The translations under genes and the position numbers were made by a program. Of a stretch of 64,000 nt of DNA, positions 215 to 18,600 are shown one piece after another. This stretch comes from Solen grandis (Eukaryota; Mollusca; Bivalvia; Adapedonta; Solenidae), in assembly GCA_021229015.1 (NCBI GenBank), contig CM037781.1, positions 66,652,656 to 66,716,655 of the forward strand. The letters are read 5' to 3'. Position 1 is the first letter of the stretch; every line of letters starts with the position of its first letter. The notes under the pieces are model-generated. The model made no database searches. It saw only the letters and a list, made by a program, of their open reading frames with translations, and was not told where the DNA came from.

Positions 215-3200
215 ATGAATCAGAGGATAATTTATCTGATTGTTATTTGTTTGATTATGGATACATTTAACGTTCAGGCATGTCATTGTCCCGATATTCC
301 CGGTAAGTGCACAAAAGGTAGTTTGTATGGTTGTTTTGTATATATCAATACTTTACGAACATGTATCATCATGTTCCCCTCTTCCCGGTAAGTGCACCAT
401 GGGTAATTTGTATAGTAATAAATATTTTTTGCTATAAATTATGTACTATTCTGTTGTTTGATCGAAACAAATCATCAGATGATATCGCAAAAAAACAACA
501 AAAAACATTTTGTATCAACTAAGAATATGTATTCAAATGAAATACATAAAGAAGATCTACATGTGTATGCAAAGCATTCATCGTAAACTAGTATATCTTA
601 AATTGTTGAAAACACTTTAAAAAGCCTTTGAATGACGATTTCTATCATTAGAGGTAAGCATGATTACATTTTTGGTAATCATACACCAGTAGTTCTACTC
701 TCCCTAGTTAATTTTGGTAAAGTCTTTGTTACATTACAAATAAATTCGGCATGTGTAGGTCACATTACACGGGAAAACGCTATTTTCTTAAACGCAACTT
801 CGGCGAAGTCATACACAGGTAGTTTATAAAATCTAACTACACTGTCCATTGCATATTATGTATAACAGTAGTATAGGGTGGCAATATGGTACCGACGGTA
901 CCATAAAATTTTGTACTTATGGTACCGTGGTACCATAATTTTTTTTTTTTTTGGTACTTATGGTACCAAATCTATAGTACCGAATGGTACTCTATATGAA
1001 AACAGAATCTATAGTACCGAATGGTACTATATATGAAAACAGATGTAATAAAATGTCTTAAAGGAGGACCACATCTTAACATTGACAATTGTAAAATGTC
1101 CTTTCGAGACATTTGGGTTGGCCCTGAAAAGGGCCGTTTTGTTTCTTCTTTAGATTTCGGTGACATTGTCCACATCGTGCTTGGTTTCGGTGACATCGTG
1201 TTCATCGTCACTGATTACGATGACATCGTTTTCATATTGTAACATCTGCTGTTGTTCTATGAGCATATGATCTTCATCTTCATCTTGTTGCTGTTGTCTC
1301 AACATCTCCTGATGTTCCATGAGCATATAGGCATCATGTTCATCGTGTTGCATCATCTGTTGTCTCAATATCATCTGATGTACCATGTTTGACAAAACCA
1401 GATGGTATTCTGCAATATGGTCTTGCTGTTGTCTCCACTCATTGCGTTGTCGTTCGATCAACCCCATCAATTCGTGGACAAATTCACTCAGTTGCTGAAT
1501 TTGTTCCATGGTTGTGCAGCGAGAATATGACCGAATGCTTGATGCGGTGCGCTTTTATAGCCTTGAGGCGGATTGACCTACTTTCTTGTGTTGGCGCACA
1601 CCAATCAGAGAACGTTATTTTTTCATCCAATAAATCAAAATTTAAAATTAAAAACATTTCAAGCCGAATTTGTAGTAGTGATGACTTTTTTTTTTGTAAC
1701 ATTTTTATTTTTTATAAACTTTTATAAACTTTTTATAAAACATTGGATCATATTTTTAATGAAAGAAAATTTGAATGGAATTTGAAAATAATGGTGACAA
1801 TTGAGGTATATTCTCTTTCGAGACATCTGGGTTGGCCCTGATAAGGGCCGTTGTTTTTGTTTTTTTCACAGAGTAGTGGTTACTCATGATTGTCTGTGAG
1901 TTTCTTCAGCAGGTATTCAACATGTTCTATGGTGATGAAATGTGCTTCAATGATATTTAAGATATCATCGTAGTATAGTTCATGAAAGTAACATGCACTC
2001 AATTTGTCTATGATACTCCTGAGTGTTGTTGTTATTTTAAGCGTACGTTGGTATCGGGCTTGTAGTTTAAGCGAACGTTGGTGTCGGGCTTCTATTTTGT
2101 CCATGTCAGATATGCAGTCGTTAGTTATATGTGACTTATCCATAGCACAGTCTGAAAACGAATGGCATGAGTTCATTTCGTTTGATACTTTTATTTACTT
2201 GGTTTGACAATTGTAAAAATATGTCCTTTCGAGACATCTGGGTTGGCCCTGAAAAGGGCCGTTTTTTTTTTTTCTCTACTTCTTACTCTTTTTGCAATTT
2301 TGTATGTCTTTACAATGGGCTCCAAGTCCATTCTTAGAATGGGATCCACCATCATGCGGACGTTTGTTGGATGCTTCCACATTTTCCGGAGTGAAAGTGA
2401 TAGGCACCACCAGCTTGTCTGTTTTCATTTTGATACGGCATTCCACTTCTACCATTCTCTTTTGCAATTTGATGAGGTTGTTGTTCACCTCTTTGAGTTC
2501 CCTCAGAATAGATTGTCCAACATTATTTACTGGCTGCGCTGCCGGTTGCTGTTGCACTGGTTGTTGTTGCTGTACTGGTTGCTGCTGGTGTGGTGGAGGC
2601 TGAGGTTGATACGTTGGTTGGTAGCTGGGTTGGTACACCGGAGTCGGAGTGTACGACACTGATGCCTGGTTAGCAGCTGTCGTCAGCTCATACAAATCAG
2701 CAGCCTGTATGGCGTTGTTAACGAGATCAGAAGTTACGTAGCTTTCCATGGTTGGGTAGTAGGATTATGATACGATGCAGTGTGCTTTTATAGTCTTGAG
2801 GCGGATTGACCTACTTTCTACTGTTAGCGTACACCAATCAGAGAACGTAATTTCCATCCAATGAATCAAGTTCGACCTTGACCTGAGTTAGATAGCATTG
2901 TCTTCGGCCTTGACATTTGGGGATGGATTGACCTACTGACCTACTTTTTTTCATAACTATATAAGTGTTTTTTTTTAAAAGAAGAAGAATGAAATCACAA
3001 TGTCCGAACAAAAACTCTGGTTCGAAAAGTGTGGTGTGTGTTTAGAGGAGAGGGAGGAGGATATATATCACATAAACCAGTGTCAATGTCAGGACATTGT
3101 ATGCGTCAGATGCTTCGCACGGCTTCAGAAGTGCCCGTTTTGTAGGGCACCCTATCAAGTGTATGCCTGGCCTGCCTGTGTTTTCGCTAAACATGGGCCT

Positions 3201-6200
3201 ACAGTGCGCTCAGCGTATTATGGCATATGGTTTGACCCTGATTATTCAGAGTTAGTAGGATGACTCCGAGTAATTCAGGATCACAAAAACCCAAAAACGG
3301 CCCTTTTCAGGGCCATCAATTATATTCGAGAGGGAATATATCACAATTGTTAATGTGTAAGATAAACAACAAGAAATCAAATCAGTTTTAGCCTTTTATT
3401 GAACTCTATGAACATTGCAAACAAAATATGAACAAACAATATGAACAAACAATATGAACAATGCAAACACTATGAACAACAAGTACACTACATTTTAATG
3501 AAAGTAGAATGGGTCCAAACTATTCGTCAGTAATTCAAAACACGCACGACCATCTCCAAACTTTGGTGGATGTTTAGCTGTGCATGTTTGTTGGTGCTGA
3601 TTACACACTTGTCTTCTTGCACGTTTGTACAGTTCTGAATAGTTCTGGTAAAACCAACATCCCACATTGGAATCGTTCAAATTGAAGTGAGGTTGATCCT
3701 CTGTCCGGAATTTAGCTCTAAACACCTGTGTTAAATCACATCCTCGAACAAGAAAATGCAAAGCAAACAAACAATATGCTCCACACACAAACGTGTTGTA
3801 TCCTTGAAGTCTCATGAGATTCCATGTATAGGGTCCATGTCTTTCCAAGAAACGTTGAATGTCACAATGGAGTGGTTTTTGTCCATACGAATCAAAGTAG
3901 TAAGTCGATTTATCGTTGAAAAACACAACCACCCAATGTTCACCAGGTTGAGTCGAATTGTGGGTATTCACTATGTAAGCTTTTACAGTCTCTGGTCTAC
4001 GTTGTGGTAGTTGATCTTTAGCACATACCACGGCATTCAAGGGAGCTAGAATTGGTGAATGATCCAAAATATACTGCAACTCAATCGTTTCCATTTTCCC
4101 AATCTTGTTTAATGCGTCCTGCCCATTCGCACTCAAAAGCTTCCAATGGCGTGATCTTGTTCGTATCTACACTAGCCTTTATGTTTGCCCACATCTGATA
4201 AGCATCAGCTTTCTCAGCGCGTGTGAGATCCATGTTTTGTAGTTCAGCGTACCATCTTTCCATCACTTGATACATGTCCAGTTTTTTTAATGCACTGTTC
4301 AGAAACATCTCGACCCACTCACTTTTGCTGCTAAACAAACATATGGGATGTTGGGTCTGACTGGGATGATCAACAATGCAACCATAACAGTTTTCTTTCA
4401 CGATATCAAAGAGGTGTGTCTGCAGTTCATGCACCACATGCTGGTTCAAACTCTTTACCATATCGTTTCGCCTATTCAAGTTGTAGATTTCTTCGTACAG
4501 TTGTTTGGCCAGCTGTTGTCCTGATTTGCTCATGGTTAATAGTCTGTGATGACTTCTCTGAACCCGTTAATCTCTATCTGACTGTCGTATTCGGCATACA
4601 CAATCACATTGATGGGGTCACCAAGACCTGCACGAAACTGAACCTCGATTCGCAAGTTTCCCGTTTTTATAGGATGCAGCTGTCCCTCTTCTGATCCTTG
4701 ATCTGGCGTTAAGTCAATGCCCCACAGTGTGTACCCCTGCATGTAATCGTTCATTGTCAGACCCATGGAGCGGTTTAAACCGAGTGATCCCGTGGCTTGA
4801 TGCAGGGACATGTATGATCTCAAAATTTCTCCTGTGGGAAAGTTAGGCTGGAACGGCAAGTTGTGTGTCGTCTTTCCGTCTACACTGACTTCTAACTTAG
4901 ACAAGTTGAAATGTTTAAAATCAAATGGGTTGGTTGCCAGATCACCGTTCATGTCTGTATTCTTTACCAGACCCAGAATGATACGTTTGGGTAACTGTCC
5001 TTGAAATAAATGATCTTCGATCTTTGATCGCTGGCCTGCAGGAATGGTGAAAGTTTTTACCTCAGCTCGGCGAATTGGGATCTTCATGCCATGTTGAGCG
5101 ATGGTCTGGTTTAAGTTGTTGGCCACTACGGGTAACAGGTCAACAGTCCGAACATTGAATCCAGCTTGAATTAACTGGATTTTTGCCTCTTCTCCAAACA
5201 GGCAAAAACTGACTGGGGTTCTGTTGAGTCGCAGCCGTATCTCTACACCATTGGGAAGGTACTTGTCTTGCAAACACAGGTCTAAATGCAGACGTCCGCA
5301 CATTTCCAGAACACGACTCTGGTGGATACGTGTTCTTCTTTTAGTAAATCCTTCATTACCTCCCGCAACTGTATGCGCTTGCATATGACCCGCCGTGTCA
5401 GGACTCCACATTTCTGTAGCGTAGAGCTGTGTTGATTTACTGTCCGTAGAATAAGACAGCAAATTCTCAATGTAGGCCCGGTACGCATACGTGTCAGCAT
5501 TATTGGTGATCAGTTTGTTGTTCAGGTACACATCAATACTGCTAAACAAGCTGTGGAAGAAATTATTTACTGTGGATGTTTCTCCATCGGCAGCCAGATT
5601 AGTGCCATCAGGTTGGACTACTTTGACTTTCAGGTACAAGTAGCTCTGGTTGATATCAGTCCACTTTTCTGATTGAGCAGGAATTACAAATTCAATGGGA
5701 GATGAATTGCTCAGTGCTGACACAGGATAATGTTCTGTCCACTGTGCGTCTTGCATTGCTGTCATGGTAGGTGGGACATGTGACACATCAAGTTCAGTTT
5801 TGCTACACTCACAAGAACCGTGTTGCATCATGTTGTTCAATCAAAAATAGCTGACGGTCGCGATGAGATTTTTCTTTTTTTGTTGCGTCTCCTTGCCGCG
5901 CTGAAAGCAGAATGATGTCGACGTTTGAAATCTCGAAGCTTTATACCTCTCAGAGTTTTCAGACCCACATCTTTCAACAATGTTTTACCCCGTTTCTTGA
6001 TCACTGTCTTTACATTTTGGCCAGACAGAATATCTTTTACGGCTCCTATACCTTGTTTAAAGCCCTCTCTTTTCAGAGTCTTTAGTCCTGAGGTCACGAT
6101 GGGTTTCATCATGGGTAAGATGTTGCTGGCCATTTTCTTGAACATGGAACCCAAACCATATCCGACTTGTCGAGGTTGACCACGGTAAACTGGAATCATC

Positions 6201-9200
6201 GTGTCTTTCTTTTAAAATGAAGCTTCACCATCGACTTCCCGTGAGTGAAATGAACTGATTCCCCTGTGTCCCCGGGTTATATTGATACTGATCTCGTTGA
6301 AATATGATCTGCTGACAGGTATGTAGTATAGATTTAGAAATTCAAAGTGCATGTGTGGATTAGCTCCTGCTTTTGTTTTTGCGTCAAATGGCACAACGCG
6401 TAAAATGGGTGCTTCGACATCCCCTATCAAAGTGTGTTCTGCCAGATCGGAATATACAAACAAGTGGTTCATCTTCGTGAAGAGGTCCACACCGTACTTG
6501 AATCTGCTGTTGTCTCTGTCCGGAAACACCACAGTACTTCCCTCTCCCCAAGTTTCGTAAGGAGAGATGGATGAAGTTCCAAGCCGATCTTTGATCCACT
6601 ATTACCGGTAAACTTGACACGTTTTGACAAGCCGGAAAAATCAAGTCCAAATGTGAGGTTTCTTTGAGTTAAAATTGTTTTAGTGGCTTGTTTAATAGCC
6701 TTGTCCATTTCGTCAGTGAGATGTTGTGGTGACGCATAGATGCCTGCAGGAATGCAAAATGGTAATGCCCATTTTTTGCCTTCTAATTCACACCCGTTTT
6801 TCACTTGTGAAAAGGCTGCCGCCAGTTCTGGATCTTTAGTCACGATGTAGAATTTTCCTTCCTCATCTTCAATGTTTTTGACTTGTGTGGGAACGATCAT
6901 TTCCACGAGAGCCACTTCCCAATTTTGTTTGTCGACATCAATGGTTTTTGTCAGCTTGGTTCTAAAACAGCATTGTGTGTTGTTTGGGTACAATGCCATC
7001 GAACTATCACTGATGAGAGTGATGTAGAAAGAATTCATGATTTCTTAAATTTTAAACTTGGGTTTGGAAGAATGTATCCGATAGAAGTACTCATCAGCAG
7101 CAACCAAAGTTCACGATCTGGACTGTTGAGACACAGGTTCACTAATGACACGATGACGATGATAAAGATGATCACAATCTGTGTCAAGAAAGTGATTCTG
7201 TTGTTTGGTACCTCACTTTTTCCTGTCTGTATACTGTTGTCTACCTGAACACTGCTGGTATCGGACTGAGACATGCTGTTCACGACGTTTATACTTTATA
7301 CTAAATGCGATTTTGGAATCCAACTGTTAAACTTTTTAGGATATCCAAGCCACTTGACTTTCACTTCTTGAAAAGTTTTACCGCCTACACGCCTTGTACG
7401 CCGATCAAGAACTGATTCCACTTCGTATAGCTCATCATCTTTTATATGTTGAATTTCATCCCTGTAGAAGGATCCGGCGATAGTTTCTCCAGCCAAATCT
7501 TCCAGTTTTACGGTCACTGGATGTGTTCTGTTGATGCGAACCACTTTGAACAATTCCACTGTCCAGTTGGGTAGATAGCCTTTGGCAAATGTTTGCTTGG
7601 TTTTATTGATGCGCACTATATCACCCACTTTCAAATCAGTTGATTTCTTATTTTTCTTTTGATGGTTGCCATATAATGTCTTGGTGACTTCATGCTCATT
7701 TTCTCTAGACACAGATGCAGGGGTACGTCCGATGCTTCGATGAAAACGATGATTGTAGCCATGTACCAATAGTTGCAGTACATCCACATAATGACGGGTC
7801 TTGTGATGAGTAAAATATTTCCACATTCTTGATTTAAGCGTACGTTGAAAACGTTCAACAATACTCGCTTTAGTTTCTGGGTTTTCAGACGTGAAGAAAT
7901 GAATGTCATGCTTGTCTAGAAACTTCTGAAAGTCTTTGTTCAAAAATTCTCGGCCTTTGTCTGTTTGCAAAGAGAGTGGTTTTCGGCCTTCTTTTAGAAT
8001 AGACTGAAAGGCTTGGATGAGCGTCTTTCCAGTTTTGTCAATGATGGGTATTACCCAAGCATATTTTGAAAACACATCAATGACACACAGTAAGTAGCGA
8101 TATGGTGAATTCTCTTTGTACATACGTTGCATATCTGCGAGATCAGCTTGCCATTGATGATCGATACCTCCTACCACAGTCTGTCGACGTCGAAATTTTC
8201 GTCGTATTGTTTTATGCAACGTGTAGGTTCTTTGACTTCTCAACCAGTCTCGTACATCCTCTAAAGTGATAGATTTCAACTGTTTTTTCGCTGCCTTGTA
8301 GAGTCCCTGAATTCCTCCAAAACTCGTAGTATTATCAGTATCATAGTACAGGTGACGAAGTAACGTGTCCTTCTTTAGTAGGCGTCCCATGACGAATGGG
8401 CTAATATCTCCTCGGGTTCTTCCTTTTTAATAGGTTTTCGTTTCTTTGATGTAGGTGGGTAGGCAAAACTATCATAAAAATCTTCCTCCTCCTCTTCTTC
8501 TTCATCATCATCTGGTGTTTGTATGAAATTCCATCGACGTTTATTGCCCACGACTTCTTGTGGGATGTTGACCTCTCTCAGTCCCTAGAAAATTGTTCCC
8601 ATCCTCGTGGATTTGACCCTTTCCGCTGTCGAAGTACATCATTGACCAGATCAATAATATTTGAACCTTCAACGGGTTTTCCATCATATTCTAACAGGCC
8701 ATGTTCATCCCAACTTAAGTGAGGATGGTCTTTCAGTATGTTTAACAAAAGAGTAGCCTTTCGCCGCATGGTCGTTGGAACACTGTCTAGAATTTGATCT
8801 TTCAAGGTCATCGGTTTTTCCTCTTTCTTTTCAGTCACTGTACTTGTTGTTTTCTCAGCCATGCGTGGTATGAAGGGTTTGAGTGCTTTTTTATGTGACA
8901 CTTGAAAGCGATGTAATACTTCTCCAAATTGTTGTGCTTTTTCTGACTCAGACAATTGATTGTCGTCAAGAACTTGATTCATTTCTTTCTGTAATGATGA
9001 AGTCTGACTCACTTGAGGGGATGGGGGTAACCGAGGTCGTTGTTCTTTCTTCCATCGATTCATCTCTTCCAACAACCGAACTGGAACATAGGCCATCTTC
9101 TTCATATTTTCCGAATGATTTCACCAGCAAGAGGTATAATTGATTTGGCTAAGAGTGGTGCAAGTGCCAACAGGGGTAGAAAACCACCTTTCTGATTGAG

Positions 9201-9617
9201 AATGATTTTCTTTTTTCGAACTGATACTTTCTTGGTCGCTAACTGTCGGAGCTGTTGTCTCTTAGAATGCAATCGACGCTTCTGGGCCTCTGACAGTGGT
9301 ACATTGCCTTTTAAAATGTTGTGACAACATTCAGCAATACAATCCACCAATTCTTTTGGTGCTTCTTGAATAATCTTTTTTCGAAATTTGGGCGAGGCTT
9401 CTGTCAAAGCAAGCAACATTTTGCCATGTTTGCGAACGAGTGGTTGTTTGCGCTTCATGATGACAAATGATGATGAAATGTTTGGTCTCTTTTATTTATA
9501 CCACTGTTGAAGGGCTTGTAAAGCGATATTGCCAGCACTACTCAGCGGTCCTGAATTTCTCATCGCAGTAACGGCAGTAGGTAAAGGGGAATGGAGGCTT
9601 GGGATTGGTGAAAATCT

Positions 9618-9652
<35 letters not shown>

Positions 9653-12600
9653 GCCCACTTGAAGAATTGGAAAGGTCAAACAATTGTCGTCGAACTGTAG
9701 GGTTTGGAGAAACCGTCATTGATCCTTGTGGTGTAGCCAACCCAGACCTCATCGAACTTCTATTAGAACGGGGAGTAGATGAGGTCAGTGGAGAGAATGG
9801 GGCCACAAGTGGTGATGCTTTGGATGTTGTCCCTGATGTAACATCACGTCGAATCAGTATGGGGGACACTTTTGGTGTTCCAGTTGATACAGAGCGTTTT
9901 CTTCTTACAGTGACAAATCGATCATGAGGCAATGTCTGCTTCTTCCTTGTTTGTTTCCTTACTGGTGACTTGCGTTTGGTTGGCTGTTGTCGTGACCGTT
10001 TCCTGGCTGGTGACTTTCGTTTGGGTGGTTGTTTTCTTGCTACTGGACCAAATTTTCTCACAGCTTTGGTCCCGTTCCATCGAAGCAGTGTACGAATGAT
10101 GGTGCCCCCAAGGAAACCTCCACCACCAGGTTTTAAAATAAGTTGTCGTTTTGTGGTCAGATCCACATGTTGATCAGCTAACTGTCTTAAAATGTCTTTG
10201 TTGCGTTCCATAAAATTCATCGTCTGTTTTGGCACGGTTACTTTTTTCTCTAAGATGAGTCGTGCAGCTAAGGTGAACCATTTCACCATCTCTGTTAATC
10301 CTGATTCTACCAGCTCTTGTCGTTTCGTTGGGTTCTTTTCCCGACTCAACGATTCTAGAGCTTTGATCACTGTATGTGGTGTGTTTTCCATGGTAGCTGT
10401 ATCCTTAATGATGATCGGGTGTCATGTTCCTGTCATTTTATACTGTAGTGTAGACGATCGGTCCTCGATCTTCACCTGTTACCCACCGATGGAACACATC
10501 TGTTCTTAAACGATTCTGGTCGGGTGTTCTTGGATGAAAGTCAATGATAAGATATCCATGAGGTGTAGAGGTTGCATCTTAATACGCCATCACCAAATGG
10601 GGTAGTTGTATTTGGTTCGCAAGTGTTTTGATCTGACCTTTATCTCTTGTGTTTTGAAATAATACCATGTAGTGTGCATTTAAGCTGATGGTACGACTAG
10701 CCTTGGATTGTTGGAACATGTTTTGTGTGATGTAAATGACAGTGGCATTTCTATGGTGTCCCTTTCGCGTGAACCATAATTTAATTTTCTCCTCATCTTT
10801 TTCTCCTAACATATCATCAAATATGACGAGGTGTGGTAAGGTTGTATCGTCTACTATCTCTTCATCATCCTCAGGGATACCCTGAATGAATTTGATAGCT
10901 TCACTTTCTTGTAACTGTGCGTAGGCACTTTGCCATTCTTTGTAACACCAGACGATGTGTTGTGGTACCACATGAAATAAATCGGTTTTGTACTCAATAA
11001 GTTTTTTTACAAATTGAGTTTTTCCTGAACCACTTGGCCCTGAGATGAAAATGTTACTAGGATGTTGAAAAAGTAAACTACTTTCCATGATGGTCTAAGA
11101 AATAATAACAGCATTGACATGACAACATTTTATTTTATACATCATAGCAAATAAAACACTTGAACAACATCAGTCAAAAATGTAAACTATGACACACATC
11201 ATGAATCAGTCTTTCTTTATACATCATCCATTCCGGCAATATCATGGTATATCCCATAGCATTTAAAGCCATGCACACTTCGTCAAACAGTTCCTCGGAT
11301 TGTCTTAACGCCTGTTCTGATTGAATTCCAAGTACACGCACAGCCAACAACACAGCTCTACGCCATGGATTCCGAATTGGAGTTATGTTTTTTTCCTGTA
11401 GTGAGTAGACTTCTCATTCGTCTTGCAAGTACTCTGCGTAGTATCTTATTTTGTAGGTGTCCCAGAGGGATTCGTCTCCCAACTCAAACCTTTCTAAGTT
11501 GTTGAAATTGGGATCTTGAAAGAACTTTTCACTAGGATTTGGCCTCGTTTGTTTGAATATTGCGGCGCACTGTTTACCAAAAATGTTAAACACTTGTTCA
11601 CAAGTGATAGGTTCTGGAGTCAGTAAAATGGCACGTATATCCTCTGGTGTGTCGTGCCGGTGGTTTATCGCAAATCTGAGATACATACCCTCATCAAAAC
11701 GGTTCAGTTTCTCCACTGTATCAATGTTCAGGGTATCAATGTATATGTACCACACGTCAGAGATCAGGTTGCGTAGCAGATTGTAAATGGCAAAAATCCG
11801 TTGAAAGACCACACTTTTATAGCTGCTTGGAAGATCACGCCCTCGTACATCACTAAACATATCATAAACTTGGTTTAAACAAGAGGGATCCTTCATCGTC
11901 TTGTGAATTATTCTGTTTCCAACGCGCTGTGCCCAAGTAAAAAATAACTCGTTGCAAAATGCAGCAGGTTTCTTATTAGCTTCAACGAGATGTCTGTAGA
12001 TCATCTGTTGCATTTCTACTGGTAGAGTGTTCATCGTGAATCTCCGTTTGTTTCCACCATCGTTCAAGCTATGCACACGATCACAAGCCAAGTGGTTATG
12101 ACGGTTGGTAACCGTACGGCACTGTCTTATATTTGTCCACGACCACGCGTTTTGTATACACTGAGCGGAACGTCTTGGTCTGTGTCTCACTGATCACTTT
12201 GCGATTTCTATGTCTCTTGATTCGGGATTCATATTCGATGACTGTCTTGTAATGTTTGCGATCTTGTACACAGTCGACCATAGTCTTAAAATTGACTTTC
12301 TGACTAGCATTGTAATCCAAAGTGATGCCTTTTACTTTGCATTTCTGATGTCGATTTCCTTTTTCATCGATATATTCATACCCATAGTTTTTTGGCCCTA
12401 ATGCCACGAATTTGACAATGCGTCCATGTGGTACTTCATCTGTCCACTTTCCCAACTGGCTCTCTTCGATTGGAATGTTGTACTGGTCAGGGTCATAGAT
12501 GTACATACAACTGTCTGTGTCAAAATACAGTACCCGATCTCCAAGTTTTTCCAACTGGGTGTAAAGTTCAAGTCGAGCATAGGACGTAACGAAGGCAGCT

Positions 12601-15600
12601 ACCACTGGATTTGAAGATGAATGGGGTTGTGTTGCGTCTGTTTCATCCGAGTAATTCACCAACATGAAGTTGTCATGATCGAAAATCTCGGCAAACTGCA
12701 CAGTGACATGACGGTCGGAGAGTAGGTCATACAACCGGTTCACCTTAGTCACATACTCGGTTTTGGTTTGAACATTATTTTGTGCATTCTTACCCCACAA
12801 GCAGTTCAACATGGTTTTGGCAAACGCTCTTTTTCCTTTGTTCTTTTTCACGTTGTCGAGCCAGATACCCTCTATCTGAAAGTAATTCTGTTTAAAGCGG
12901 GCTTCATCATCTTCTGTTTTTACCCAATTAGGGTAACCACTTGCTTCTTGTTTCAATTTCAAGTATTTGTTAATATACTGTTTATACACATCTTTACTCC
13001 ATGTGTCCCAGTGCCAGATGTGGAAGACGTCTACCAATTGGTATCCTAACTCAAGAGCTTTGGCTATTTCCACATGGGTCCAGGTACCTGTCAACATGCG
13101 TTTGTACAGAGTGTGATTGCATTTTTCACACTCTTCCTCAGCACAGGTACGGCACAGTGTAAAGATCATTTTCTTGTTACAGTGAATAGGAAGGACTGGT
13201 AGCCACAGGACTTGTGGTGGCAATACACGACATTTGATGAGTCCCTTGTACATTCCAATGTTCTTTATATCAATCATCTCTTGACTTAAGATGTTGGGAT
13301 GTCCCACGGGGTATGCTTTGTACTTGTTCACGAATGGATACAGTGAGCAAATGTCAGCATACTTGATTTCTTCCTTGGTGGTTGTATCCACTTCATGGTA
13401 TAATTGAACGGCATTGGTTCGTCCACCAAACAAAGCATCCCGAGGTATAATAGGTTCTTGGAAGGGAAAGAAACGGTTCACAGTATCTCTGTATTCTGGT
13501 TCAATCTTGCATTTCTGATCAAAGTCACATTCCCACATTACAACTGTGTTGTAACCTTGTTGAGACAAGTCTTTCAACCGAAAGGTTGTGGCATTGTATA
13601 ACTGCTCCATAGTTTGAAGTGTGTAACCGTTCACACTGTCTCTCCTTGGTAACATTTTGGACATCCATGTGTCCAGCACCCCATGAATTCGTATACGGTG
13701 TTTGTCTCTTTGTGGAATCCGTCAACGTAATAGGGTCCAATTTGTACTTCACCTCCATTTAATGCATGGCGAATGTGCTTATTCTCAATGGAAGCAGTTG
13801 TTTCTATCCAACGAATCCCTTTGATTGAGTATCGAGTTTTGTTTGGATACCCGGCATCAGAGATTACAGCCAAGGTCTTTGGAGGCATTGAATTTTTACG
13901 CCAAGCTTTGTTGCACACTTGAGCTAGAGTGGTCGCTTCCAGGAACGGATCAATTTGGTCACTGGCCAACAGTTCTTTCCTAAACTCTCCACAACCTCGT
14001 CTCAAGATGTCCACATCTGATTTGCAGTACTTTTGCATTTCTAACTGAAAGTGAAACACAGCCTTTTGTGCCACTTTTGCATTGTACCATTTCAGAAACG
14101 CTTCTCTCTTGTCAGGTTTCATGCTGTCGGGTCTGTAAAAATGTACGGGGAGATAGTCTCCAATGTAGTCTTGGTATTCATCCGTGTTGGCATAAAATGG
14201 AAACCATCCTTTTGCCATCTCAGTCAATCCAAACGTGTCGGGGAAATCGGACAAAGGCATGTTGAGAAAACTCAGTGAGTCGATGAATCTCACTTGATGG
14301 GCTTTCATCATTAGAATTTTGCTTCCATTCATGATCAATTCTGGTTTGGTTGTATCATGTGTCAGTAAGTGCCTCAAAATAAACTGTGCATCGTATCCTT
14401 GTGAGTTGTGAGCAATCACTGTGGTACCTTTGTGACTGGGTTGAAACAGCCATGTACAAAATTCTGACAAAGTGTTGTTACCACGAAATATTTTTTCTCT
14501 AGGCTCATCCACAGCTTCGCATTTCTGACACGGGTTTTCCATGGATTGACACATACAGTCTCCACAAGAACGTTGAGCAACACAAAAGTTTGGTATATGT
14601 TCACCCAAATCAAATCGACACTCAAAGTCAAAGAAGATGAAAGGTACAGTCGGTGACTTCATGTTCTCTGGTTCTTTGTACGTGGGGATATAACACTGAT
14701 GTTCTGCATCTACAACTTTCTTGCAATACTTGCATTTTTTAGTGCCAGGACAGAGATGGTTCTTCTTTGTGCCCACAACCATTTGACCACAGGTCTTGCA
14801 TTGCCATACACTTTCACAGATATTTTTTGTAGATTTTCCTGGTTTCGCTTTGTGCTGATCAAAACATTTCTGACTATGAAATGTTCTACCACAGTGACCA
14901 CATGGAAAGAATCCTTCTTTTGGGCATAGTGTCAAGGCGTAACACATTCTTACACCAGTGAGCTTCTCTGTTGTTATAACCGTAGTTACAGTGTTCACAG
15001 AAGTAGCTGCATCCCAGGAAACCAGTGATTGATGCAATGCAATCATAATGTTTATCATGATGATAAATGTGAATCACTTTGCTTTTGTCTGTCAGAGGTG
15101 GGTGATTGAACAACACGTCCATTTTCTCAAATTGTGGCCACACTTTGATCACATAGTCTGGATAAAGGTGGGCTTAAATCTTCTTGTATTCTTCTATACC
15201 ACAAGGCTGATTTGGACTAATGCCTACACTATCTAACAATGTCTTGGCTTCTTGGCTTTGAAGAAATTTTGCAGATTGTCTCATCAAATTCCATCGCTTC
15301 TTCCAGGCTGTATCGTCCGTTTTATTGAGTTTACATATCCCTACCACAATTGATCGTGCCAAGCACATACTGTCGTGAACATTGTCTATCTTTACCATAC
15401 TTCGTTTGACTTTGGTCATGTTCTCAATGCTCAGGTGAGATCCAAACTTCTTTTTTTTTTCCCCCCCGGGCATGTGTCATTTCTAACTGGAGATGCCCGT
15501 CATGAATCTCAAACTTGTGGTTGCTTTGTGATACTTTCTCTATTTCGTTCAACAGCGTATCTCCTGAAATGTGTGTTGCATTCCCGAATGGAATGTGGAT

Positions 15601-18600
15601 ACCAAATGCTAGGTCAGGATGATTTATGGAGATACGAATTTGATCGTTGTCATTGACCCGTGCTTCTCTGTATAACTGTTTCACCATGTCATTGAAAAGT
15701 TGATGTGTATTTATATCTTTCAAATGTAACATCGTACACGTGGCCATTCGTTTTAAACTTTCTTGAAGTTCTCTGTGACCGTGGCTGTATGGAATAATAT
15801 CCCGTATATCACTCTTGGTCTTTTTTGCAGGTGGCTCATCATCGCTGCTTTCTTCACTACTCGACATCGTTGTGATTATAAGTAAGTGAGCAAAGCTTTT
15901 TTATACATCTAAGCTCCGCCCACCTGATCTCAGGCCTATAAAGTGCGGTGTGACCCGTCCACTTCATCACTCTCAAACCTGATTCAGACTGCTCTGTTCA
16001 GAATGACCTGCAATACATTTGAGTTCTGGGTGAAAGGACAACTACAAGCTATCAGTGACAAGCTGATCAGACTAGAAACAGAAAGACAAGTGACATGCTA
16101 CCGCTGTCAGGAAAAGGGGCATTATGCATCGGCATGTACGAAGAAAGCACCTCAAACAGTACGGGTGTGCTACCGTTGTCATGAACCGGGACATTTTGTT
16201 TCTAATCGCCCAAAACCTACAGTGTGCTACAGTTGTCACGAACTAGGCCACTTTGCATCCGCTTGTCCTAAGAAATGGATGAATAGTACTGTACCTACAG
16301 TAAACGCACAGGTGGACAGTGAAATGCAGAAAATGGACGTAGCTGAGACAGTGCCACAGACGGACAGTGATGTTGAGCTACTAGAGACTGTCTCTGAGTT
16401 GGAGAAACCTACCGTAAAACCCAAGAAACGCAAGAGAAGCGTCAACACATGCATCGTGTGTCCTGAGGCTCACCCATCAACAAGCAATACAGAGTGTAAC
16501 CGACCAGCTAAGAAGCGAAAAATGACATTTGAACACTAGACTTGAAAAAAACAACAACAAAAGTTGTGTTATGTTCATTATTTGCTGTATGACGCACGTT
16601 TAATTCATTGTTACTGTATGACACATGTTTGTTGTTAAACACAATAAAAAAAAAATCATATGACAATTGTATTAGTTATCCTTTCTACATCATTGTAATG
16701 GTCCTGAAAAGGACCGTTATTTATTGAGAAGTGTCTAGCACTCACTCAAATACAAATACCGCCAGTAATGCCTGCTGGCTTCTGGATATGCTAGGTAAAA
16801 CCCTGACAAATCCGGGTACAATGGCAAAGGGGGTAAACTCGGGTACAAGTTGACACCCTCTTCCTTTATACCCTCTTCCTTGACTTCTACTTTCTTCTCC
16901 TTTCGTAACGCCTTCCTTGCACGTCGGAATAACTTACGAAGGAAATTCATGGTGAAGAATGAATACATACACAGCATTACACAATTTATAGTCAAGAAAA
17001 AAGTAGGTTAGTAGGTCAATCCACCCCAAAATGTCAAGGCCGAGAACAATGCTATCTAACTCAGGTCAAGGTCGAACTTGATTTATTGGATGAAAAAATA
17101 ACGTTCTTGGTGTGCGCCAACACGAGAAAGTAGGTCAATCCGGTACTATAAAACAGTGCACATACTCTATACTTTATTATTCATGATTGAAACATGAGAC
17201 CGTACACACGTAGGTCCACCCCAGACTTGCTAAAATTGTTCCTCGACAGTCCCAGCTATGAGGAACAAGAGAGCGACCCAGACAGCTATCACGACCAAGT
17301 TGATGTGTATGATCTATATGTCACTCTTACAAAAAGGGGAGATCTCCCTAATTACCTGTCAGTTACCTTTGAAGATGTACCATCTACCCTACTACAGGGA
17401 TCGGGAGACAGCCTGAACTTCATAGTGACAAGGATCTAACCCGTTGTCATTTGCATCTCCTTGCAGGATGGATGAAGAGATATGTCCTGGGATGGGACTG
17501 TCAAACGTGTGGTATAGACCACAATATGTGATGGGACTGTACAACGTGTGGTATGGACCACAATTCATAAGAAACAAAACGGCCCTTTTCAGGGCCAACC
17601 CAAATGTCTCGAAAGGACATTTTACAATTGTCAATGTTAAGATGGGTCCTCCTTTAAGACATTTTATTACATCTGTTTTCATATATAGTACCATTCGGTA
17701 CTATAGATTCTGTTTTCATATAGAGTACCATTCGGTACTATAGATTTGGTACCATAAGTACCAAAAAAAAAATAAAAAAATTATGGTACCACGGTACCAT
17801 AAGTACAAAATTTTATGGTACCGTCGGTACCATATTGCCACCCTATACTACTTATAACAATGAATGCTTAACAGTCTATTATGTTGAAGAGTTGTGTGTG
17901 TGTGTGTGTGTGTGTGTGTCTTTAATGAATGATTTTTAGACTTATTTATATAGTGTTTTATATCTTCGCTTTAATTGCAGTTAAAACTTGAAAATTCAAA
18001 CACCTTGGATTGTTCCTAGTTTCTGTACCTCATGATTTCAAAAATACGTTGTGGTGAATATAAATTGTGTCTGTAAAAAATGTATGTGAAAGAGGTTGTC
18101 TGGGATATGGTCAAATCATTCGTTTGCGTGACGTTTCGTGAATTTTCTGTAACGGGGGGAGGGAATAATTATATCTAAAAAAACTACATGGTAAATTTTC
18201 TTCTAATTATTCGGATAAACCAAGAATATGATATTATTTATGAAAATAGTTTATTTCACTTGAGCTGAATTTTTGAATAGGTGACTTAAGTGCAAACTTC
18301 ATATCTCTGTATATATGTCTTAATGTATATCACCAACTGTCATAGATACGTATATCTATATCACTGATTATGTGTATTGTATCAGCATTTTAAATAGTAG
18401 AGTCTTTAGATTCATTAGAGACGTATTTCCACTATCGGATACCTTTATATTTTTTTTCATTTACTGGTACATCACAGGAATAGGAAAACATGTGTTTTCA
18501 TAACTGTTAGCAGTTCGGCCAAAATGAATACACATAATTAAAAGGTAAATTAAGATAAACGGCGATGTTTTAAAAGGTCACATTAGTTTAGACAATATCT

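What the first reader, a model, noticed from the sequence alone, without database searches (positions are those of the whole stretch)
1085..17636. Six Polinton accessory genes end in histone-type mRNA stem-loops
Seen: hairpins at 1120-1135, 1834-1849, 2245-2260, 3299-3314, 16700-16715 and 17581-17596 all fit the metazoan replication-dependent histone 3' stem-loop (GGYYYT, a TTTC or TATC loop, ARRRCC), all have AACGG directly upstream, and all are in sense orientation 14 to 141 bases past a stop codon, on both strands. One stem has a compensated base-pair change. Known: this structure is bound by SLBP, and histone mRNAs carrying it are cleaved with U7 snRNP and lack poly(A). Inference: the element borrows the S-phase histone 3'-end pathway for a subset of its genes, giving cell-cycle-coupled expression of unpolyadenylated mRNAs. 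I know of no report of this in Polintons.
Basis: partly seen in the sequence, partly recalled or inferred. Interest (0 to 1): 0.93.

Follow-up and report, generated by a model that had tools for sequence, protein, structure and literature searches.

The report
Polinton genes dressed as histone genes
A virus-like mobile element in an animal genome ends six of its genes with the RNA signal that the host uses for its histone genes, and starts most of them with histone-type promoter words, which suggests that it has tied these genes to the phase in which the host copies its DNA.

Summary
Confirmed and extended. The element is a Polinton at 867-17852. All six hairpins are where stated and match Rfam Histone3 (E 3e-7 to 1.5e-4), though only one of six passes the curated cut-off. 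Two lie in the terminal inverted repeats and count as one. Each hairpin runs on into a purine-rich box and a CAATTGT box. The host's H1, H2A, H2B, H3 and H4 genes end in the same three-part layout. A model built only from seven host histone 3' ends finds exactly these six places in 64 kb: 49-56 bits, next best 15. New here: five of the six genes also have host histone promoter words. GTAGGTCAATCC occurs five times in the window, only in these promoters, and upstream of host H2A and H2B genes. The core genes share no more with host histone units than chance. The genome holds 2,397 such hairpins against 1 for the reversed pattern; among the 100 listed, many repeat the window's layout. Best reading: a histone-mimicking, S-phase class of Polinton genes. 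Not shown: RNA 3' ends, SLBP binding, U7 pairing (no convincing U7 gene found). No precedent appeared in the paper searches made.

The parts
867..17852 (.). Polinton element, 16,986 bp, flanked by the 6-bp direct repeat TATAAC (861-866 and 17853-17858)
   Evidence: inverted-repeat arms; ends and target-site duplication read by eye
867..1147 (.). left terminal inverted repeat, holds the A1 hairpin module
   Evidence: arms I1, I3, I4, 99-100% complementary
17569..17852 (.). right terminal inverted repeat, holds the A6 hairpin module
   Evidence: arms I1, I3, I4
1150..1509 (-). gene A1, 119 aa, Gln/acid-rich, no Pfam match
1120..1135 (-). A1 histone-type stem-loop
   Evidence: 56.4 bits with the host model
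1099..1105 (-). A1 purine-rich box GAAAGGA (histone downstream element position)
   Evidence: read; host model alignment
1084..1091 (-). A1 CAATTGTC box, shared with host histone genes
1570..1581 (-). A1 promoter word GTAGGTCAATCC, 10 nt before TATAAAAG
1880..2176 (-). gene A2, 98 aa, no confident Pfam match
1834..1849 (-). A2 stem-loop with TATC loop
   Evidence: 49.4 bits
1813..1819 (-). A2 purine box GAAAGAG
1796..1803 (-). A2 CAATTGTC box
2276..2749 (-). gene A3, 157 aa, Pro/Gln-rich, no Pfam match
2245..2260 (-). A3 stem-loop
   Evidence: 54.9 bits
2224..2230 (-). A3 purine box GAAAGGA
2206..2213 (-). A3 CAATTGTC box
2803..2814 (-). A3 promoter word GTAGGTCAATCC before TATAAAAG
2750..2999 (.). 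shared divergent promoter A3/A4, with words at 2803, 2925 and TCAAGGTCGAA at 2871-2881
3000..3263 (+). gene A4, 87 aa, RING-like zinc finger (best Pfam E 1.9e-4, below cut-off)
   Evidence: pN/pS 0.19-0.67 in 5 copies
3299..3314 (+). A4 stem-loop, the only one over the Rfam gathering score
   Evidence: 50.7 bits
3328..3334 (+). A4 purine box GAGAGGG
3344..3350 (+). A4 CAATTGT box
3495..15867 (-). core gene block without hairpins: protease-like, capsid candidate, integrase with chromodomain, A32-type ATPase, family B DNA polymerase in two overlapping frames, others
16003..16539 (+). zinc-knuckle gene, no hairpin, AATAAA 103 nt past its stop
16735..16977 (-). gene A5, 80 aa, no Pfam match
16700..16715 (-). 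A5 stem-loop GGTCC/GGACC, the same stem and loop as the host H1 genes
   Evidence: 49.8 bits
16679..16685 (-). A5 purine box GAAAGGA
16662..16669 (-). A5 CAATTGTC box
16978..17193 (.). shared divergent promoter A5/A6, with words at 17011 and 17130 and TCAAGGTCGAA at 17066-17076
17194..17439 (+). gene A6, 81 aa, no Pfam match
17581..17596 (+). A6 stem-loop, inside the right terminal repeat
   Evidence: 56.4 bits
17611..17617 (+). A6 purine box GAAAGGA
17625..17632 (+). A6 CAATTGTC box

Best explanation
A Polinton has given its terminal accessory genes the regulatory dress of its host's replication-dependent histone genes. Shown by sequence: six genes end in the host-type histone 3' module (stem-loop, purine-rich downstream box, CAATTGT box), and five of the six have histone promoter words in their promoters, while the core replication and virion genes have neither. 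Inferred: host histone transcription factors switch these genes on in S phase; SLBP binds the hairpin; U7 snRNP cuts a few bases after it; the mRNAs carry no poly(A) and are made and destroyed with histone mRNA. The likely gain is an early gene class that runs on host machinery alone just when nucleotides and replication factors are at hand, while the core genes follow the ordinary poly(A) route.
For: Six Histone3 matches. Host-only covariance model: 6 of 6 sites at 49.4-56.4 bits (E 3e-11 to 3e-13), next best 15.3 bits in 64 kb. The host H2B end aligns with 2189-2272 at 80% over 84 nt, E 2e-12. Host H1 has the same variant stem as 16700. GTAGGTCAATCC (up to 1 mismatch): 5 places in the window, all in A-gene promoters, 0 exact in 20 resamples, and in H2A and H2B promoters of the host arrays. 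Shared 12-mers with host histone units: left accessory block 39 seen, 4.3 expected; right block 28 seen, 1.2 expected; core 29 seen, 26.3 expected. Genome: 2,397 hairpins against 1 for the reversed pattern; of 36 clusters made from the 100 listed, 14 fit three or more and 4 fit all six positions of the window's layout. Of 20 hairpins fetched, 19 have a purine box and 18 a CARTTGT box.
Against: No RNA evidence of any kind. No convincing U7 gene: best Rfam match 29.7 bits, cut-off 34; pattern hits at chance level, 17 against 18 in the control. Codon comparison supports purifying selection for A4 only; the others scatter around 1, mostly in decayed copies. A2 has no recognisable promoter. The host H1 and H3 promoters lack GTAGGTCAATCC and H4 has only a related form, so the word is not universal for host histones. 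A3 has an AATAAA 80 nt past its stop, beyond the hairpin, and A5 one 9 nt past its stop, before the hairpin. In L004, L005 and L007 the A4 gene is gone but its hairpin is kept. The genome-wide count of the promoter word did not complete.
Confidence: 0.75

Rival explanations
1. Passive baggage. One or two histone gene ends were captured by chance and then spread by gene duplication and terminal-repeat copying. They may be processed, but bring no advantage and carry no cell-cycle logic.
For: Three of the five independent modules are close copies. A1-A3, A5 and A6 show little protein constraint. Copies are numerous and many are decayed.
Against: A4 and A5 modules differ strongly in the spacers yet keep hairpin, purine box and CAATTGT box at the same distances. 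A5 has the H1-type stem. Promoters carry histone words as well. Core genes have none. Among 20 non-bait copies the purine box (0.956) and stem-loop (0.921) are more conserved than the preceding UTR (0.828) and the following 40 nt (0.80), though the margin is modest.
Confidence: 0.15
2. The hairpins act as something other than histone-type mRNA ends: transcription terminators between convergent or tandem genes, or replication or packaging signals, since two lie in the terminal repeats and CAATTG is a palindrome.
For: Two modules sit in the terminal repeats. The CAATTGT box has no assigned function. The A4 hairpin lies between two convergent genes.
Against: Each module is in sense orientation just after a stop codon, on both strands. 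The host-histone model fits hairpin, spacing and purine box together. Host histone genes carry the same CAATTGT box.
Confidence: 0.08
3. Chance or low-complexity artefact.
For: None found.
Against: Mean 0.0 in 100 resamples; 2,397 against 1 genome-wide; E down to 3e-13 with a model that had not seen the element.
Confidence: 0.01

Closest known systems
Polintons / Mavericks (adintovirus-like elements)
   Same: Integrase with chromodomain, family B DNA polymerase, A32-type ATPase, long terminal inverted repeats, 6-bp target-site duplication.
   Different: Histone-type promoters and 3' ends on accessory genes are not a described Polinton feature as far as I know (recalled). The searches that named Polinton (listings and abstract beginnings only) showed no report.
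Metazoan replication-dependent histone genes
   Same: Stem-loop, spacing, purine-rich downstream box, CAATTGT box and, for five of six genes, promoter words as in this host's own arrays.
   Different: The genes encode no histones. The loop is TTTC or TATC, while most host copies have TTTT (only H1 has TTTC). Two pairs are divergently transcribed, whereas the host arrays fetched are all on one strand.
Teratorn (herpesvirus fused with a piggyBac transposon in medaka; seen only in listings)
   Same: A virus-derived mobile element living in an animal genome.
   Different: No histone-type signals are mentioned in the abstract beginnings that I saw; not tested further.

Membership tests
Polinton / Maverick | retrovirus-type integrase with chromodomain | tested here: met
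   PF00665 E 2.7e-13 and PF00385 E 2.7e-9, both over cut-off
Polinton / Maverick | family B DNA polymerase | tested here: met
   PF03175 in two overlapping frames, E 5.3e-27 and 9e-14; the frames were not joined
Polinton / Maverick | A32-type packaging ATPase | tested here: met
   PF04665 E 1.1e-7, 32 bits, cut-off 22.8
Polinton / Maverick | adenovirus-type protease | tested here: inconclusive
   PF00770 E 0.0045, 17.1 bits, cut-off 21.3
Polinton / Maverick | major capsid protein | tested here: inconclusive
   431-aa candidate 4536-5831 has no Pfam match; homologue search not possible; identity inferred from size and place
Polinton / Maverick | terminal inverted repeats and 6-bp target-site duplication | tested here: met
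   99-100% arms; TATAAC on both sides
Histone-type mRNA 3' end | 6-bp stem, 4-nt loop, conserved flanks | tested here: met
   6 of 6 by Rfam at E <= 1.5e-4, 1 of 6 over the gathering score
Histone-type mRNA 3' end | purine-rich downstream element at histone spacing | tested here: met
   host-trained model aligns it in 6 of 6
Histone-type mRNA 3' end | downstream element complementary to host U7 snRNA | tested here: inconclusive
   no U7 gene over cut-off; pattern hits at control level
Histone-type mRNA 3' end | SLBP binding, cleavage after the hairpin, no poly(A) | not testable with these tools
   needs RNA and protein work; the host SLBP gene search did not complete
Host histone promoter type | GTAGGTCAATCC or TCAAGGTCGAA near TATA | tested here: met
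   A1, A3 and A6 in the host orientation; A4 and A5 through the shared divergent promoters with the word reversed; A2 not met

The most novel reading that the evidence does not exclude
Complete histone-gene mimicry by a virus-like element: a separate S-phase gene class with host histone promoters and unpolyadenylated, SLBP/U7-processed mRNAs. The trick is common enough that element-borne histone hairpins far outnumber the host's own, and it was taken up separately by other parasites in the same genome (a herpesvirus-like insert and an SGNH-like repeat family also end genes with the module).
Probability: 0.5. Interest if true: 0.95.

Novelty: new variant of a known kind. Interest (0 to 1): 0.88.

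Why it matters
Metazoan histone mRNAs are the textbook case of mRNAs that end without poly(A), through a pathway thought to serve almost only histones. A virus-like element that uses the whole histone cassette for one class of its genes would show that this pathway can be hijacked, would explain how a Polinton could time expression to host DNA replication without a regulator of its own, and would mean that poly(A)-selected RNA libraries miss a class of its transcripts. With 2,397 hairpins in one genome, it also raises the question whether element RNAs compete with histone mRNAs for SLBP. All of this can be tested with total RNA from one animal.

Tried and rejected
Chance origin was rejected. 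Six independent sites was rejected: two are terminal-repeat copies.

Search for the strict motif in viral contigs gave 2 stretches, both phage-like by their ORFs and without any Rfam match: chance. Relatives of the capsid candidate, of polymerase piece 12096-13664 and of the L033 helicase in viral contigs: none. Capsid candidate and L033 helicase against phage records: none.

U7: Rfam search gave 9 matches at E <= 10, none over the cut-off; the control rang in 12 of 14 prokaryote genomes, so the list means little. The best, L051, has no tested promoter and I do not claim it. A pattern of host downstream element complement plus Sm site gave 10 + 7 places against 9 + 9 for the control; none of the 17 looked convincing.

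Selection on the modules: only a modest excess of conservation (first attempt failed). The layout fit uses wide tolerances; single hairpins fit trivially and two SGNH-family hairpins were fitted wrongly, so only clusters of three or more are meaningful. The purine-box test uses a loose pattern, and its 20 sites were hand-picked: 12 from two six-hairpin copies and 8 hairpins standing alone in the listing.

The list of 52 Histone3 matches is incomplete: 75 of 260,318 candidates were scored and the window's own six are not in it.
Full report
Observation. Six hairpins of the histone type lie exactly at the stated coordinates, in sense orientation 14 to 141 nt past stop codons, on both strands. All six match Rfam Histone3 at E 3.3e-7 to 1.5e-4, one of them above the curated cut-off. 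The other 46 kb of the window has no such match at E <= 0.1. The stems at 1120 and 17581 are terminal-repeat copies of one another, and 1834 and 2245 resemble them. So the count is six hairpins, five sites, and at least three clearly different modules.

The element. It runs from 867 to 17852, with inverted repeats 99-100% alike and the direct repeat TATAAC on both sides (by eye). It encodes an integrase with chromodomain, a family B polymerase in two overlapping frames, an A32-type ATPase, and a protease-like and a capsid candidate: a Polinton. Hairpins follow only the genes at the two ends (A1-A4 and A5-A6). The core block and the zinc-knuckle gene have none; several of these have AATAAA within about 100 nt of a stop codon.

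Host comparison. Histone3 searched in the window's own genome (1.32 Gb) gave 52 matches, from 75 scored of 260,318 candidates. By my sorting 29 lie in two histone arrays (18 read, 11 by position), 14 in other copies of this Polinton family, 2 with a gene of a herpesvirus-like insert and its chromosomal copy, 6 with an SGNH-like gene family, and 1 with no gene seen. The host arrays hold H1, H2A, H2B, H3 and H4. Their 3' ends have the stem-loop, then about 14 nt, then a purine-rich box such as CGAAAGG or GAAAGAG, then CARTTGT, with one exception: an H2B copy in L062 that keeps the hairpin without the two boxes. The Polinton modules have the same three parts at the same distances. blastn aligns host H2B and H4 ends with Polinton modules at 80-83% over 63-84 nt, E down to 2e-12. 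A covariance model built from seven host histone ends only finds the six sites at 49.4-56.4 bits, with 15.3 bits as the next best in 64 kb. The variant stem at 16700 is the stem of the host H1 genes, which hints that A5 took its end from a different histone gene than A1-A3 did (inference).

Promoters. In the fetched arrays GTAGGTCAATCC (up to 1 mismatch) stands upstream of the 3 listed H2A and 3 listed H2B genes, with one further place that has no listed ORF. H4 has GTAGGTCAATGTCAAGGTCGAA; H1 and H3 have neither. In the window it occurs five times, all exact, only in the promoters of A1, A3, A3/A4, A5/A6 and A6; exact matches in 20 resamples of 64 kb: 0. A3/A4 and A5/A6 are divergent pairs; A4 and A5 have the word in reverse orientation. 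A2 has no promoter that I can see. As a test without chosen words, 12-mers shared with two host histone units were counted: 39 in the left accessory block (4.3 expected), 28 in the right (1.2 expected), 29 in the core (26.3 expected), 153 in the host flank (96.1 expected, a mild excess that I cannot attribute). The excess in the accessory blocks falls mainly on hairpins, GTAGGTCAATCC, GTCAAGGTCGAA and GACAATTG.

Other copies. For gene copies in 14 loci, excluding the hairpins that had served as bait and three copies cut off by the end of the locus, 15 of 22 keep a hairpin scoring 14 or more of 16, 5 score 12-13 and 2 score 10 or less; L004 and L005 are near duplicates. Gene-specific features persist: TATC in A2, GGTCC in A5. 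In L004, L005 and L007 the A4 gene is deleted and its hairpin kept. Over 20 non-bait alignments mean identity is 0.956 for the purine box, 0.921 for the stem-loop, 0.864 for CAATTGT, 0.828 for the UTR before and 0.80 for the 40 nt after. Genome-wide the pattern ACGGYCCTTWTCAGGRCCA with up to one mismatch occurs 1,157 + 1,240 times, against 1 + 0 for the reversed pattern. The count includes some host histone hairpins. The first 100 places were listed, all exact and on C1; they form 36 clusters, of which 14 fit three or more and 4 fit all six positions of the window's layout. Of 20 hairpins fetched, 19 have a purine box by a loose pattern and 18 the CARTTGT box.

Mechanism. The simplest reading is that the host's histone transcription and 3'-processing machinery expresses A1-A6. 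That step is inferred from sequence; RNA ends, SLBP binding and timing are untested. The U7 test failed to find the RNA. A4, a RING-like protein, is the only accessory protein with a clear sign of purifying selection, pN/pS 0.19-0.67 in five copies; the others scatter from about 0.4 to 4.5, largely in decayed copies. So the regulatory layout is better supported than the coding roles.

Known or new. Ten paper searches were answered; I saw listings and abstract beginnings and opened no paper. None of those listings shows a report of histone-type 3' ends in Polintons or other mobile elements. The library lacks most subscription journals, so this is weak evidence of absence. The parts are known, the combination appears not to be: hence 'new variant of a known kind', with high interest.

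Noticed in passing
L033 1-6571 (G000 contig C687): Dense ORFs including a 743-aa helicase whose best solved-structure matches are herpesvirus replication origin-binding proteins (E 1.8e-4). The gene at 6137-6481 ends in a histone-type hairpin (40.1 bits). The rest of the contig that I read looks like host DNA, so this is probably a herpesvirus-like insert.
   Followed up: partly
L034 5655-6140 (G000 C5, near 27.67 Mb): A second copy of that 114-aa gene, 95% identical over 486 bp from just before the TATA box to the purine box, in unrelated flanks. Whether host or virus had it first is open.
   Followed up: partly
L017, L020, L021, L022, L035, L036, L045, L047: A multi-copy SGNH/GDSL-like gene family on several chromosomes ends in stem-loop, purine box and CARTTGT box. 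Its nature (host gene or mobile element) is unknown; it lacks the AGGTCAAT promoter word.
   Followed up: partly
window 2177-2244: A2 starts only about 70 nt after the A3 hairpin and has no TATA or CCAAT within 220 nt. If A3 RNA is cut at its hairpin, it is unclear how A2 is transcribed.
   Followed up: no
window 1084-1091, 3344-3350 and the like; host histone genes in L060, L061: The CAATTGT box about 28-32 nt after the hairpin is shared by most host histone copies read and by all six Polinton modules. I know of no described function; it could be extended U7 pairing or a termination signal.
   Followed up: partly
window 1570-1620, 2803-2937, 17005-17142: The accessory promoters are rich in AGGTCA half-sites, including AGGTCAGTAGGTCA. 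By recalled motif this resembles nuclear-receptor sites; not tested.
   Followed up: no
window 16735-16977: A5 protein has YPSL and YPDL stretches, which by recalled motif resemble ALIX-binding late domains; not tested.
   Followed up: no
window 12096-15058: The DNA polymerase is read in two overlapping frames (12096-13664 and 13631-15058), so this copy may be broken; left as it is.
   Followed up: no
L041 1453-1521: A histone-type 3' module (45.4 bits with the host model) with no gene or Polinton similarity seen nearby.
   Followed up: no
L062 3361-3420: One host H2B copy keeps the stem-loop but its downstream boxes are replaced by AT-rich DNA, perhaps an insertion.
   Followed up: no
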